Assembly (NCBI RefSeq): GCF_024713975.1
Contig: NC_091103.1
Coordinates: forward strand, 2,031,501 to 2,095,500
Source of the DNA: Paralichthys olivaceus
Taxonomy: Eukaryota > Chordata > Actinopteri > Pleuronectiformes > Paralichthyidae
DNA length: 64,000 bases
Reading direction: 5' to 3'
The position numbers and the translations under genes were made by a program. The number at the start of each line of letters is the position of its first letter. Positions within the stretch are counted from its first letter, which is position 1. Shown piece after piece: positions 38,710-61,694 of this stretch. The notes beneath the pieces were generated by a model. It saw only the letters and a list, made by a program, of their open reading frames with translations, did no database searches and had not been told where the DNA came from.

Positions 38710-39651
38710 ATGCCGGCAAAGACGCCAATTTACCTAAAAACTACGACTCCCAAGAAAGGAAAGAAGCTGAAGCTGCGTGACGTCCTCTCAGGGGACATGA
38801 TCAGCCCCCCGCTGGGTGACGTACGTCACAGTGCTCACGTGGGTCCTGAAGGAGAAGGCGACATGTTTGGAGATGTGGGTTTCCTGCAGGGGAAGATGGA
38901 CATGCTGCCGTCTCTGAGCCGGACACAAAACGGTCACGCACGCTCGCACAGCGTGGAGAGACGCCTGGACGAAGACTTTGCAGCCAAACACGACTCACAC
39001 AACTACTCCTACAACGGTTTCCATTATCAGCACACCTGCACCGGCCTGCTGAAGACCACCATCTCCATGCCCGTGTTCATCGCCCACGAACAGGCGCCAC
39101 CCAAACCCCCACGCCTCCACCTGGACGACCCCTCCCCTCCCTCCCTGCCCCCGCAGCAACAACACATCCAGCACAATCAGCAGTCGACAGAGACGAGCCA
39201 CAGACAGAACAACGGCTTCGATCACACAGAGAACCACGTCCAGCAGCACCCGACTCTGTCGCTCTGTGAGAACGGCGTGGTGGGACGTTTGGCATCAGAG
39301 CCCTGCCGTGACATCTCCCTGTCCCCCGCCATCCGCAGGCTCGTCCCCTCCTCTGGCTCCTTTTCAGAGGTCTCCTCTGAGGACTCCATGTCGGAAACCT
39401 GTGGGCCGCTGGACGCTCGCCGGGGCCTCAGTCTGGATTCTGACGCCGGCCTGAGCAACGAGGATCTGAGGAGCGAACGCAGCGAGTCTCCGTGTGCTGC
39501 CTTTCATCCGGCCGCTCTAGCGGACTCGCCCGGTGTGTCCCACTCTGACTCTATGGTGGGTTTAAACCTGGACCTGGGTCCGTCCATCCTGGAGGACGTG
39601 CTGAGCATCATGGACAGATACAAGACCACAGACAACCGCTGTGAGCTGTGA
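38710..39651 (+). CDS. CDC42 effector protein (Borg family, EP2/EP3-like)
   Basis: Borg proteins bind GTP-loaded CDC42 through a CRIB motif and link it to septins and actin at the cell cortex. This single coding exon gives 313 residues, starting at an ATG in good context (AAACAAAATGC). The N-terminus [10 protein letters not shown], then [17 protein letters not shown], is typical of CDC42EP3 and CDC42EP2. The CRIB lies at residues 31-45, followed by the family block [14 protein letters not shown] central [12 protein letters not shown] recalls CDC42EP2. The C-terminal [19 protein letters not shown] is the conserved Borg homology end. The middle is rich in Pro, Ser, His and Gln. The protein is longer than mammalian EP2 (about 210) and EP3 (about 250). 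The CRIB phenylalanine is replaced by valine (residue 38). I cannot decide between EP2 and EP3, so no symbol is given. Confidence 0.92.
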
Positions 39652-40540
39652 AACAAACATTAATGTCATATACAGATATTTTTTTATGGTCTAATATATC
39701 CTGAAATCTTTGTGTAGAGACTAAAGGAGGTGGAGGACGGAGGAATGGAAAATGTAGGGTGGAGAAAATGTCTTCTTCAAGAAGATTGACAGCTGAGGTC
39801 AAAGGTAATGAAAGACTGGAGGAGGCCTGTGGACATTATTGTTAAGTGCTGGTACGTTTCTGCTCGACATGACAACAGGCTGGTCCTCAGGAGCCGTTAT
39901 CGACCCTCAGACTTAAAAACGTTCACGGAGCAGAACCACAGTCGCCTTGTTATCACGAGCTTTGGACACATTCCTCTTCTCTGGACAAAATATCAGCAAC
40001 TATTCACTTTATATCGTCTGTTGATGAGTTTTTCTGCTTGTTAACTGATGTATAGAAATAAATATGATAAACTGACTCTGGGAAAATGGGAGAAATTATA
40101 TTCAGGAGCAGCCGGACACTCGTCTGTGGATAAACTGCAGCTCATAAGTCGTTTTCTGTCCTGACTCATTTGCTGCGTCAAGTGTTAAATTTAGGACCAA
40201 ATATAAATTTCTTCACTGTTTCTCTATAAAGACAGATGAAGATTTAAGTGAACTGGTCTGAGATCAGACGTGTCGGCAGCCGACTACTTTCTTCTGATCA
40301 GAGGAAAACTGAGGAAGTTTGTTTGCGTAGTTAAACTAATAAAAAAGTTAAAGTGTAATAAAAAGTGCTGCTTCGTAGATCATGTTGAGATACTGGTCCT
40401 TTTTAAACACACGTCACTCGTCCATGTTGCGGCTCAGTGTCACAGTCGCTGTCTGCAGCATTATCACAGTAGCCTAATATTCAAATGTCATTTATGATGT
40501 ATGTATATGTCACTGTACATGTATGAATAAAAGGTTCCTA
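39652..40540 (+). other. 3' UTR of the CDC42EP gene
   Basis: Non-coding sequence follows the stop codon. AATAAA signals lie at 40057-40062 and 40526-40531; the second is followed closely by a CA microsatellite. Confidence 0.55.
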
Positions 40541-40572
40541 TAAAAGAAACGCTTTGGATACATGAACAGTTC

Positions 40573-40574
<2 letters not shown>

Positions 40575-40616
<42 letters not shown>
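40575..40616. repeat. (CA)n microsatellite
   Basis: A CA run of about 20 units with a CG interruption near the end. Confidence 0.95.
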
Positions 40617-41129
40617 TGGTTGTAGTTGAGGAAACACTTTCCCATGCACCAGCAGATTGGAGCAATTGCCGTTCCAGTTCAGTGCTGGATTTCTCCTCTG
40701 GGGGCCCGTGGGCAAAACTGAGGCCACAGAAACACAGAACACGTCCGTCGTCCCATGATGCTCCGAGTCCCAGAAACCAAACCTCATCTCTACACTGGGC
40801 TGAAGTGTTGAAGATAAAATATGAAAAACTAGATTTACAGTCACCTCAAGCTCCTCAACCTGATCTGAACACTTCAGTGAGATGAATGAGTCGTTACTTT
40901 AAACCAGTGTTTGTTGGTTTGACTAAACATAAACTGAGTTGGACTTAACTAGTGTCCGTCAGCGGATATGTTCAGTATGAATGTCCAGTAGAAAACTGCT
41001 GAATGTGACCAGTAGAAAGTTTCAATCATTTTCCTCACGTGATCAGTTAATTCAGTTTCTGTTCGGTTCCAAAAGCAGATTTTAACCGAACTGAAGAACA
41101 ACCGCTTCGCTTCTTACCATCTTATTGTG
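40617..41129. other. Intergenic sequence without recognised features
   Basis: Between the CA tract and the tandem array upstream of ercc2 I see no gene, promoter element or repeat I can name. Confidence 0.5.
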
Positions 41130-41406
41130 AAAGGACCAACCGGAAGTTGAGTTAGACTGTATTGGTTGCATTGACTCTACTTTTACTCTTGAAATTCGAT
41201 CATGATCGACCCGCGTTTTCTTTGTTTCCCTCTAGCGGTCACAAAGTAGAACTGCAGGTTGTTTAATTAATAAAGTTATCGTTAATGCAGGTGCTTCCAC
41301 TACCTGTTTCCTCTTTCAAAAATAATTTACCGGATGTTGAACCACCTGTATTGTCTGCATTTACGTAATCTTTACAAAAACACAATGATGTAATATCCCG
41401 GTATGG

Positions 41407-41420
41407 CCACTGGATGGCGG
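41407..41420 (+). promoter_or_regulatory. CTCF-like motif, array copy 1
   Basis: CCACTGGATGGCGG matches the CTCF core consensus CCASYAGRKGGCRS at 13 of 14 positions; the sixth position is G, not A. Confidence 0.4.
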
Positions 41421-41619
41421 TAAAGTATAAAAGGTCAAATGTTCTTAACGCGGAACTGTAAAAATACTGAATTAGTAAAGAGCGTTGATGTGGGTATAAC
41501 ACATACATAAGCTTTTCCGGTTAATCCTTTCAAAATAATTTACTGAATGTTGAAAAAAAACTGTGTTGTCTGCATTAACGCGATCTTTACTACAACAGTC
41601 GTGTAGTTTCATACAACAA

Positions 41620-41633
41620 CCACTGGGTGGCAG
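41620..41633 (+). promoter_or_regulatory. CTCF-like motif, array copy 2
   Basis: CCACTGGGTGGCAG, 13 of 14 matches to the CTCF core, with the same sixth-position difference. Confidence 0.4.
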
Positions 41634-41803
41634 TAAACAGTCATGATCTGTAAAATACTGAATTAGTAAAGAGCGTTGATATATGATTCGTTAGCACTTC
41701 CGGTAAATCCTTTTTAAAACAATTTACCGGATGTTTAATAAACTGTTTTATCTGCATTAACGTAATCTTTACTAATACACTGTGATGTAATTCTACCTCA
41801 CGG

Positions 41804-41817
41804 CCACTGGGTGGCGG
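41804..41817 (+). promoter_or_regulatory. CTCF-like motif, array copy 3
   Basis: CCACTGGGTGGCGG, 13 of 14 matches, embedded in GGCCACTGGGTGGCGGTA. Confidence 0.4.
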
Positions 41818-42092
41818 TAAACAGTCATGAGACAAGCTCAACTCGACCCGGAAGTGTAAAAAACTGACTTAGTTAAAAAAAATGTTGAAGACACAATACG
41901 CTGGCGCTTCCGGTTAACCCTTTCAAAATAACACCTAAACCTCTTCAGAAATTATGAACATAACTAATATGGAGATAATAATAAAAATATTCACTGTTAT
42001 TCATTATTATTATTATTGTTGTTGTCTGGTTGTAGCGGAAGTAACTGTAGTACTAGCAGTGAGTACTGAGTGATAAATAAAGTATTATTCGG

Positions 42093-42106
42093 CCTGTGGG
42101 GGGCGG
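42093..42106 (+). promoter_or_regulatory. CTCF-like motif, partial array copy 4
   Basis: CCTGTGGGGGGCGG, 12 of 14 matches, followed by the TAAA that also follows the other three copies. Confidence 0.35.
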
Positions 42107-42246
42107 TAAATCCTCTTGGAGTGTTTAATTGCCATAAGTCTTAAAAGAAGAAGAAGAAGAAATAAAAGGAAACACTTCCTGTGTCTCCAGTTTTCATCGT
42201 GTTTTCTTTTTGTTATTTATTCTGAAGTTGTTGAATTAACGTCAGT

Positions 42247-42291
42247 GGAAGAAGAAGAAGAAGAAGAAGAAGAAGAGGAGGAAGAAGAAGC
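42247..42291 (+). repeat. (GAA)n tract in the ercc2 5' leader
   Basis: A near-perfect GAA run ends about 10 bp before the ercc2 ATG. It is purine-only on the plus strand and must fall within or next to the 5' UTR. Confidence 0.85.
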
Positions 42292-42300
42292 TGCACCAAC

Positions 42301-49930
<7,630 letters not shown>

Positions 49931-58543: not shown

Positions 58544-59703
58544 ACTGACCTTGGAACAGCACACAGAGGAAAACATAAATAGCTGAATAAGTCATTGCAG
58601 TAGTTCTGGTGGTACAAGTGGAAGCTGAAAAAGCCTTGTGACATCCAAAGAAGACACAATATATTTACTGCAATAGTAGAATTAGACTTAACTGCAGCAG
58701 TAGTAAATACAGTGAAGTATGTGATAGCTAACCCAACCTCCTATTTTTAGGACACACACACACACAACCCTGTTCACTGTAGGTGGCGCAACAGGTCTCA
58801 GGCTGCAGTCAAACCAGCCTCCTTCTGAAACACCATCTAACCCCCCCACTCATTTCATCGTGCGTATTTTCTATAAACATTACGTTACGGGCATTACCGA
58901 TCATTACGTTACGTACACGTTAGCGTGATTTCAAAATAAAAGGCAACCTTCCTGTTAATGGAAAGGAAAAAACAAATTAAGAAAAAAATGATTATCGAAA
59001 ATACATAAAATGTTTAAACTATATTAAGAAATTATAACAAATACGATGAATGATAAGAAATTACGAATACCCATGAAACTATTATTAAGAAAAAGAGACT
59101 TAACAAATGAATGATTCATTGTCATGACAACTGTGGGAATAATTAGTCATAAGTAGACATTTTTATGACTTTCATTGTTTCCACAGACTGAAGTCACGTC
59201 ATGATGTCACGAGATGATTCTAATCTAGTTTCAAAGTAAAAGCCCTACAAAATATCGTATTTTCACTGCTTTCGCCTTTTATTTTGAAATCACTCTAGCA
59301 TGCTCGTCACGTAATGTTTGTAGACAATGCGCACTGAGAAATGAGTGGGCGCTGTTAGACGGTGTGTCAGAGGCTGCTCTGACCTCTGACCTCTGACCTC
59401 AGCCCAGGGGTCAAGACTCTTTATGTGAATTAAACTTCATTTAATAAAGTGACGCAAACAAACTGTCGACTGATGAAACGAAGAGTGCGTCACATCCTCT
59501 TTATATACAGTCTATGGTCACATCACGTTTCTGTTTATTTACTTTAACTTAGACCTGATGTGTGTGTGTTACTGTGCAACACACGCACACACGCACATAC
59601 ACGCGCACACACACGCACAGACAGACAGACAGACAGACCACACACACACACACGCACATACACACACACACAGACAGACAGACCACACACACACAGACAC
59701 AGA

Positions 59704-59763
<60 letters not shown>

Positions 59764-59768
59764 ACACA

Positions 59769-59817
<49 letters not shown>

Positions 59818-59839
59818 ACAGACAGACAGACAGACAGAC

Positions 59840-59870
<31 letters not shown>

Positions 59871-59942
59871 AGACCACACACACACACGCGCGCACACACA
59901 GACAGACAGACACACACACACAGGATTTATTTATAGCCTCAC
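58544..59942 (-). other. klc3 5' intron (inferred) upstream of the start codon
   Basis: On the minus strand a strong donor (GCAG then GTGAGG) lies at 59943/59942. An acceptor ending at 58545 (CCAAGGTCAG) sits 31 nt upstream of the klc3 ATG. These define a likely intron in the 5' UTR. The stretch 58560-59540 otherwise holds no recognisable gene; part of a dispersed repeat lies at about 59490-59525 ('atacagtctatgg'). Confidence 0.5.
59561..59922. repeat. Complex CA / GACA satellite
   Basis: About 360 bp of alternating (CA)n, (GACA)n and CACG units, including two GACA blocks near 59619-59640 and 59816-59840 and several CCACACA joints. It lies in the inferred 5' intron of klc3, 20 bp from the donor of its first exon. 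Apparent long open frames here on both strands are repeat translation, not genes. Confidence 0.95.
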
Positions 59943-61400: not shown

Positions 61401-61694
61401 TCCTTCTCTGTCTCACACTCACTTTGCACTCATAAAACCCACTTTCCCAATTCTTCTGTTCGGTTTATTGGTGAGTGGCAACCAATGTCACAGTGCATTA
61501 CAGCCATATTGCTTTTTAATAAAGAAAACATTTGGATCAAAGCAACATATACAGCATGTGAAATCAAAGATGACTAGATTGAAGATTAAAGCAAAACAGA
61601 CTACTGATAGACTTCTTGATGGGTTAGGGATTGCCAAAGTATCTGAAGTACAGCAGTAGAAATATATGAAATTGTAAACGGACAAAGCTTGAAA

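What the first reader, a model, noticed from the sequence alone, without database searches (positions are those of the whole stretch)
41130..42110. Tandem array upstream of ercc2 repeats CTCF-like and ETS-like motifs
At least three diverged ~200-bp units each carry a 14-bp motif matching the CTCF core at 13 of 14 positions (41407, 41620, 41804), with a weaker fourth at 42093. They also carry CCGG-centred ETS-type sites (CCGGAAGT at 41140 and 41848; CCGGATGT at 41330 and 41727; ACTTCCGGT at 41696; GCGGAAGT at 42035). The motif cores appear more alike than the surrounding unit. An array of same-direction CTCF-like sites between a signalling gene and a DNA repair gene could act as a boundary or multi-site promoter. 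I have not seen this described.
Basis: partly seen in the sequence, partly recalled or inferred. Interest (0 to 1): 0.75.

Follow-up and report, generated by a model that had tools for sequence, protein, structure and literature searches.

The report
Duplicated CTCF/ETS promoter array before ercc2
In a fish genome, the DNA just before a DNA-repair gene (ercc2) has been copied in tandem several times, multiplying binding-site-like motifs for a genome-folding protein (CTCF) and for ETS activators, and it looks most like an enlarged gene switch rather than a proven chromosome boundary.

Summary
The array is real. Three tandem units (213, 184, 209 bp; 41312-41917) lie before the ercc2 start codon (42301), with a decayed unit before them and a solitary core after them (42090). 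A recalled CTCF matrix ranks the four forward cores 1st, 2nd, 3rd and 5th in the 64-kb window; a reverse site (41223) is 10th. Seven ETS octamers stand against 0.08 expected. CpG observed/expected is 0.92-1.14 over the array, 0.46 in the window. Two DNA searches of the 588-Mb genome found the unit only here.

The last core (42093-42168) matches, E 7.5e-6, a profile built from 47 dispersed copies of a CTCF-like element ending in (GAA)n; units U1-U3 do not. Those copies show promoter signs on one side: higher CpG downstream (36 of 47), more ETS cores (13 versus 2 of 47), long ATG-led frames (10 versus 1, 0, 2 of 47). Four precede OGG1-, SNAPC2-, RRP1- and TCTA-like starts.

Best reading: a tandemly enlarged ercc2 promoter with ETS and CTCF-type sites. 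Boundary function is untested. No binding or expression data were available.

The parts
41122..41311 (.). U0: decayed outer unit; ETS CCGGAAGT at 41140; reverse CTCF-like site at 41223-41241. Orientation ambiguous because the unit is partly palindromic.
   Evidence: R1 hits 41181-41317 minus (19.3 bits) and 41128-41190 plus (13.6 bits); both orientations beat most shuffles; matrix score 15.49 minus against 6.12 at 41226 plus
41312..41524 (+). U1: full unit; ETS CCGGATGT 41330; CTCF-like core 41404-41422
41525..41708 (+). U2: full unit with an internal deletion; left ETS lost; ACTTCCGGT at 41696; CTCF-like core 41617-41635
41709..41917 (+). U3: full unit; ETS 41727, 41848 and 41906 (minus); strongest CTCF-like match of the window 41801-41819
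42034..42168 (+). Promoter-proximal segment: ETS GCGGAAGT 42035, CTCF-like core 42090-42108, TTGCCA and (AAG)n; diverged member of a dispersed CTCF-like element with (GAA)n tail. Its left half is not demonstrably a copy of the unit.
   Evidence: R2 hit 42093-42168, 21.1 bits, E 7.5e-6; left half no better than shuffles (214, 384 and 485 of 1000 as good)
42248..42290 (+). (GAA)14 tract just before the start codon, presumably 5' UTR
   Evidence: position read
42301..42305 (+). ercc2 first coding exon (ATGAA, Met-Lys with the first base of the next exon); next exon from 42598, [19 protein letters not shown]. Splice sites inferred by reading.
   Evidence: exon sequence matches XPD residues 3-60, E 3e-30; start and splice sites read
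38710..39651 (+). Upstream neighbour: Cdc42 effector protein gene (BORG/CEP family), ending 1.5 kb before the array
   Evidence: Pfam BORG_CEP 1.3e-23 and PBD 1.6e-6

Best explanation
The array is the proximal promoter region of ercc2, enlarged by local tandem duplication of a roughly 200-bp segment that carries ETS sites near its ends and a CTCF-type site in the middle. Shown here: the duplication, the motifs, the CpG preservation, the position before the start codon, that two DNA searches found the unit nowhere else, and the kinship of the start-proximal core with an element that precedes other genes. Inferred: that an ETS factor (GABP or ELK type) binds and activates, that CTCF binds and holds the promoter open and perhaps docks distal enhancers, and that several copies make the promoter more robust. 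Any insulation from the upstream cdc42ep gene would be a secondary effect of the same bound CTCF.
For: Array directly before ercc2 in sense. CpG o/e 0.92-1.14 in the five 200-bp bins of 41001-42000, against 0.46 for the window and 0.16-0.54 in the seven bins from 42201. ETS sites 7 against 0.084 expected. The start-proximal core matches a profile built from 47 dispersed copies without window sequence, E 7.5e-6. Those copies have promoter signs on their 3' side: CpG o/e 0.74 (+60..+400) against 0.49 upstream (bootstrap 95% of the difference 0.15-0.35; 36 of 47 loci), ETS cores in 13 against 2 of 47 loci, ATG-led ORFs of 90 aa or more in 10 of 47 against 1, 0 and 2 of 47 in three control positions. 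Of 10 N-terminal peptides picked by eye (10 of the 47 loci), 4 hit Pfam above cut-off (Nop52/RRP1, SNAPC2, OGG_N, TCTA), 2 below it (UQCC3, DDE_Tnp_4), 4 not at all. In the 10 copies, whose search word left the first 12 CTCF columns free, 9 score in the best 5% of random 12-mers. Precedent: 104 of 168 CTCF sites tested in human promoters were functional, and promoters with functional CTCF sites are enriched for GABP motifs (PMC3491394, passages).
Against: No TSS, ChIP or reporter data exist here. The CTCF matrix was recalled, and all four forward cores have G where CTCF prefers A at matrix position 9. The kilobase before the array is not CpG-poor either (o/e 0.43-0.80 in 40001-41000). U1-U3 do not match the dispersed-element profile, so kinship is shown for the last core only, and U4's left half is not homologous to the units. 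The dispersed copies are mediocre CTCF matches on average (mean 12.5; 24 of 47 at 15 or more, 10 of 47 below 10). They are repeat-like: homology reaches up to 800 bp upstream in some pairs, so part of the pattern could come from repeats lying upstream of genes. At 50 aa the ORF test separates poorly (22 of 47 against 13, 6 and 18). Selection on the core is weakly supported (neutral simulation P = 0.021, ancestor and threshold chosen after seeing the data).
Confidence: 0.5

Rival explanations
1. A tandem CTCF insulator or domain boundary between cdc42ep and ercc2: several bound CTCF molecules stop cohesin, with one reverse and four forward sites.
For: Four forward cores and one reverse site within 0.9 kb are 5 of the 10 best CTCF matches of 64 kb. 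Tandem CTCF sites act as insulators in mammals (abstract of PMC7087399), and divergent sites are enriched at boundaries, though not required (passages of PMC10703910).
Against: The sites lie beside one gene's start codon; a related core recurs across the genome, with promoter signs, in front of other genes. Zebrafish CTCF at TSSs shows no clear motif orientation bias (passages of PMC8438036). The reverse site is weaker and its unit decayed.
Confidence: 0.22
2. A neutral, locus-specific tandem repeat: one ancestral segment happened to hold a CTCF-like and ETS-like match and duplication multiplied them.
For: Copies are non-independent; conservation is spread over several blocks; the units are 23-28% diverged and the outer one is decayed; two DNA searches find the unit only here.
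Against: The three cores keep high scores despite 12-16% divergence per copy (P = 0.021), the two changes within the 18-bp core fall at CTCF-tolerated purine positions (matrix recalled), CpGs are preserved over the array, and the start-proximal core is of the same type though its flanks are unrelated to the unit.
Confidence: 0.2
3. The cores are bound by another zinc-finger or promoter factor whose motif resembles CTCF's right half (GGCGGTAA).
For: GGCGGTAA is fixed by my search words; the dispersed element has conserved letters outside the CTCF footprint (CACACTCC before, itself a search word; TGCRCC and TTGCCAACCGCC after). Several of the first 12 columns score negative on average under the CTCF matrix.
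Against: Columns outside GGCGGTAA still follow CTCF information content (Spearman 0.71, p 0.009) and letters (0 of 10000 column permutations as good).
Confidence: 0.08

Closest known systems
Promoter-proximal CTCF sites with GABP/ETS motifs in vertebrate promoters (PMC3491394, passages; zebrafish CTCF at TSSs, PMC8438036, passages)
   Same: CTCF-type and ETS sites together in the proximal promoter of a housekeeping gene
   Different: Here the pair has been multiplied by tandem duplication of a ~200-bp unit; no occupancy is known
Tandem CTCF insulators (Pcdh, beta-globin, Igh: PMC7087399, abstract; Pcdh and HOXD boundaries: PMC10703910, passages)
   Same: Several CTCF sites in a row, mostly one orientation
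   Different: Cores only 184-289 bp apart, next to a single start codon, no looping or insulation data
CTCF-binding tandem repeats DXZ4 and D4Z4 (PMC3491370, PMC2639723; titles and abstract starts in the listing)
   Same: Tandem repeat units linked to CTCF
   Different: Those are macrosatellites; this is a 0.8-kb diverged array
Zebrafish transposon-derived CTCF sites and promoters (SINE3-1a, HATN9_DR; PMC9341505, passages)
   Same: The dispersed (GAA)n-tailed element is a repeat with a CTCF-like core near gene starts
   Different: Not identified with any named family here; the array unit itself was not found dispersed

Membership tests
CTCF binding site | High-scoring match to the CTCF core motif | tested here: met
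   Ranks 1, 2, 3, 5 (plus) and 10 (minus) of 64 kb, both strands; matrix recalled from memory
CTCF binding site | Occupancy by CTCF in vivo | not testable with these tools
   No ChIP data for this genome
Tandem CTCF insulator | Several CTCF sites in tandem | tested here: met
   Four forward cores in 0.7 kb plus one reverse, by motif only
Tandem CTCF insulator | Enhancer blocking, cohesin stalling, domain boundary | not testable with these tools
   Needs Hi-C or a reporter
Vertebrate CpG/ETS promoter | Lies at the 5' end of a gene, in sense | tested here: met
   Core 42090 is 0.2 kb and the end of U3 0.4 kb before ATG 42301; following exons match XPD
Vertebrate CpG/ETS promoter | Preserved CpG, ETS sites above chance | tested here: met
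   CpG o/e 0.92-1.14 against 0.46 (0.43-0.80 in the kilobase before); ETS 7 against 0.084
Vertebrate CpG/ETS promoter | Measured transcription start | not testable with these tools
   No CAGE or RNA data
Dispersed (GAA)n-tailed CTCF-like element of this genome | Significant match to a profile of the dispersed copies | tested here: met
   In the array region 42093-42168 only, E 7.5e-6
Dispersed (GAA)n-tailed CTCF-like element of this genome | Array units U1-U3 match the same profile | tested here: not met
   No hit at U1-U3 up to E 10 with default filters
Transposable element (for the ~200-bp unit) | Further copies elsewhere in the genome | tested here: not met
   Only the array itself is found (each first look gave one candidate, and diverged copies could be missed)

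The most novel reading that the evidence does not exclude
This fish carries a dispersed, orientation-fixed promoter module: a CTCF-type site with a (GAA)n 5'-leader, copied into the 5' ends of many genes (among them OGG1 and ercc2, both DNA repair), and at ercc2 the promoter was further built up by tandem duplication of an ETS-CTCF unit. It would be a mobile-element-like way of handing CTCF-dependent promoters to genes.
Probability: 0.25. Interest if true: 0.7.

Novelty: new member of a known kind. Interest (0 to 1): 0.42.

Why it matters
If the sites are bound, the locus is a compact natural test of what happens when a promoter's CTCF and ETS sites are multiplied: several graded copies sit in one 0.8-kb stretch. 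The wider point is the dispersed (GAA)n-tailed CTCF-like element. One pattern alone finds 87 places in this genome (2 for the reversed control), and the 47 copies examined show promoter signs on one side, which suggests that part of a fish promoter repertoire comes from one repeated CTCF-bearing module. That could be checked against public zebrafish or medaka CAGE and CTCF ChIP data.

Tried and rejected
Array unit as a dispersed transposon: no copy outside the array. The three other exact genomic matches of the 17-bp core (C5, C7, C10) look unlike the unit in their flanks by eye; a blastn of the array against them and L014 was cut at 40 lines, which held only L013 hits, mostly (GAA)n, so it shows nothing for the other three. 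R1 hits there (19.0, 13.5 and 13.7 bits; E 1.8e-4 to 0.009) lie over the core that selected them; the other 47 of 50 sources had none up to E 1. Foldable unit: U3 and U1 fold no better than shuffles (z -1.21 and -0.14; U2 not folded). Structured RNA: no Rfam match at gathering scores in the window. Second array elsewhere: one paired-core pattern finds only this array, another finds one place on C8 (L069, of which I saw only the truncated printed match) and, by its spelling, could not find this array; ETS plus core 10-40 bp apart finds none. Start-proximal segment as a fifth full unit: not supported. TCF25 as the gene after copy L040: recalled from its N-terminus, no Pfam and no PDB match. The second R2 hit (61451-61506 minus) as promoter of the next gene: unlikely, CpG o/e there is 0.11 and CpG-richer sequence lies near 59 kb.

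Literature: ten searches. In the listings I saw no paper naming the dispersed element or a CTCF array at fish ercc2; one search searched three of its 10-11-base words, and the 40 of 54 papers listed looked unrelated by title. A term search of the main text of a zebrafish promoter-architecture paper (PMC10695386) found no CTCF or ETS. Absence from this library proves little.

Count notes: the 47 dispersed copies are the distinct ones among the loci held (L014, L019-L068). Of the 87 places, 30 were cut out as loci and 4 more were held; 53 were not examined, among them the C12 cluster. In one search masked N runs inflated the threshold of the +75..+225 comparison; I rely instead. The 0..+100 CpG bin contains the search word itself; one search leaves it out.

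Full report
WHAT IS THERE. The 1.2 kb before the ercc2 start codon holds three clear tandem units, U1 41312-41524, U2 41525-41708 and U3 41709-41917. A weaker outer unit U0 (41122-41311) is recognised by a profile of U1-U3 on both strands (19.3 bits minus, 13.6 bits plus). Because the unit is partly palindromic (ETS half-sites and AT-rich blocks recur inverted), the orientation of U0 cannot be settled. After U3 comes AT-rich sequence, then a solitary core at 42090, an (AAG)n tract, a (GAA)14 tract and ATG at 42301. Two following exons match XPD residues 3-60 at E 3e-30, so the gene is ercc2, and the two residues of exon 1 fit. The neighbour upstream, in the same direction, is a Cdc42 effector gene.

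MOTIFS. With a CTCF matrix recalled from memory, the window's best matches are 41801 (22.0), 41404 (20.8), 42090 (19.4), 18707 (18.8) and 41617 (18.0); the minus-strand site at 41223 scores 15.5, tenth. So 5 of the 10 best in 64 kb lie in 0.9 kb. All four forward cores have G at matrix position 9, where CTCF prefers A. ETS octamers SCGGAWGY occur 7 times in the array and 13 times in the window, against a shuffle mean of 0.084 and a maximum of 2 in 500. Copies made by duplication are not independent, so these figures overstate the surprise. The 18-bp core is among the best conserved windows of the unit (0.5% as good), but the 19-bp footprint is not (20% as good). A neutral simulation gives P = 0.021 that all three cores keep their scores; ancestor and threshold were chosen after seeing the data.

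CpG. Observed/expected CpG is 0.92-1.14 in the five 200-bp bins of 41001-42000, 0.64 in 42001-42200 and 0.16-0.54 in the seven bins after that; the window as a whole has 0.46. The five bins before the array (40001-41000) have 0.43-0.80, so the step is sharper on the gene side than on the far side. This fits a region that stays unmethylated, as promoters do; it is indirect.

GENOME CONTEXT. The window lies in a 588-Mb, 25-contig assembly. The 633-bp and 222-bp array queries find only the array, each from a single first-look candidate, so diverged copies could be missed. The 17-bp core pattern has 6 places, 3 of them in the array, control 0. Two paired-core patterns find no second array.

THE DISPERSED ELEMENT. 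A pattern joining the last core to (AAG)n found one further place, before a gene with weak DDE transposase similarity. Widening it (a lead recalled from fish sequences) gave GGGCGGTAATGCRCC with 10 places and control 0, GGCGGTAA-N25-55-CAAGAAGAAGAAG with 10 places and control 1, and CACACTCC-N6-16-GGCGGTAA with 87 places and control 2, of which 15 lie together on C12. Forty-seven distinct copies were aligned and made into a profile without window sequence. In the window it hits 61451-61506 minus (E 1.2e-8) and 42093-42168 plus (E 7.5e-6), and not U1-U3; a third hit, E 2.1, is the (GAA) tract. The full CTCF matrix scores the 47 copies 12.5 on average, 24 of 47 at 15 or more and 10 of 47 below 10. 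In the 10 copies, whose search word left the first 12 CTCF columns free, 9 score in the top 5% of random 12-mers; L036 does not.

PROMOTER SIGNS OF THE DISPERSED COPIES. Downstream of the 47 copies CpG o/e is 0.88 in the first bin (which includes the search word), 0.69-0.78 to +400, and back to 0.48 at +500; upstream it stays at 0.35-0.52. Over +60..+400 it is 0.74 against 0.49 upstream, higher in 36 of 47 loci. ETS cores are found within 250 bp downstream in 13 of 47 and upstream in 2 of 47. ATG-led ORFs of at least 90 aa start in +40..+350 in 10 of 47, against 1, 0 and 2 of 47 in the three control positions; at 50 aa the figures are 22 against 13, 6 and 18, so short ORFs do not discriminate well. 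Ten N-termini picked by eye gave Pfam hits above cut-off to Nop52/RRP1, SNAPC2, OGG_N and T_cell_tran_alt (TCTA), below it to UQCC3 and DDE_Tnp_4, and none for four; one of those four matches a steroid 5-alpha-reductase structure. Among 232 collinear matches between copies, nearly all end between +8 and +99 on the 3' side, near the (GAA) tract, while a few pairs reach 430-800 bp upstream, which is repeat-like.

INTERPRETATION. The simplest account is a promoter: ETS sites for activation, CTCF-type sites for openness and enhancer contact, multiplied by local duplication. In human promoters 104 of 168 tested CTCF sites were functional, and promoters with functional CTCF sites are enriched for GABP motifs (PMC3491394, passages). 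A boundary role is compatible, since tandem CTCF sites insulate in mammals (PMC7087399, abstract), but nothing here tests it. Whether the dispersed element is a transposon end that became a promoter, or a promoter module spread by another route, is open.

VERDICT. Observation confirmed; interpretation partly supported; as an array it is a new member of known kinds (promoter-proximal CTCF/ETS clusters, CTCF tandem repeats). The dispersed element is the more interesting lead.

Noticed in passing
window 61451-61506 (minus): Best window match to the dispersed CTCF-like/(GAA)n element profile, E 1.2e-8, about 2.9 kb upstream of and on the same strand as a kinesin-light-chain-like gene (klc3 by recall; Pfam shows TPR only); CpG-poor, so probably an old copy.
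   Followed up: partly
G000 C12:23899089-24527312: Fifteen copies of the same 28-base match within 0.63 Mb, 7 on minus then 8 on plus; 9 of the 13 intervals within the two groups are 10.8-16.6 kb. Looks like an inverted pair of tandem gene arrays sharing this element.
   Followed up: no
L014 (G000 C7:19685900-19695800): A 286-aa open frame with weak DDE transposase similarity (below Pfam's cut-off; HARBI1-like by recall) starts 86 bp after a dispersed element core; perhaps a domesticated or recent transposase gene.
   Followed up: partly
L063, L037, L034, L045: Dispersed element cores lie 142-264 bp before the start codons of OGG1-like, SNAPC2-like, RRP1-like and TCTA-like genes, in sense.
   Followed up: partly
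window 59579-59922: Long imperfect (AC)n tract, 344 bp, upstream of the kinesin-light-chain-like gene.
   Followed up: no
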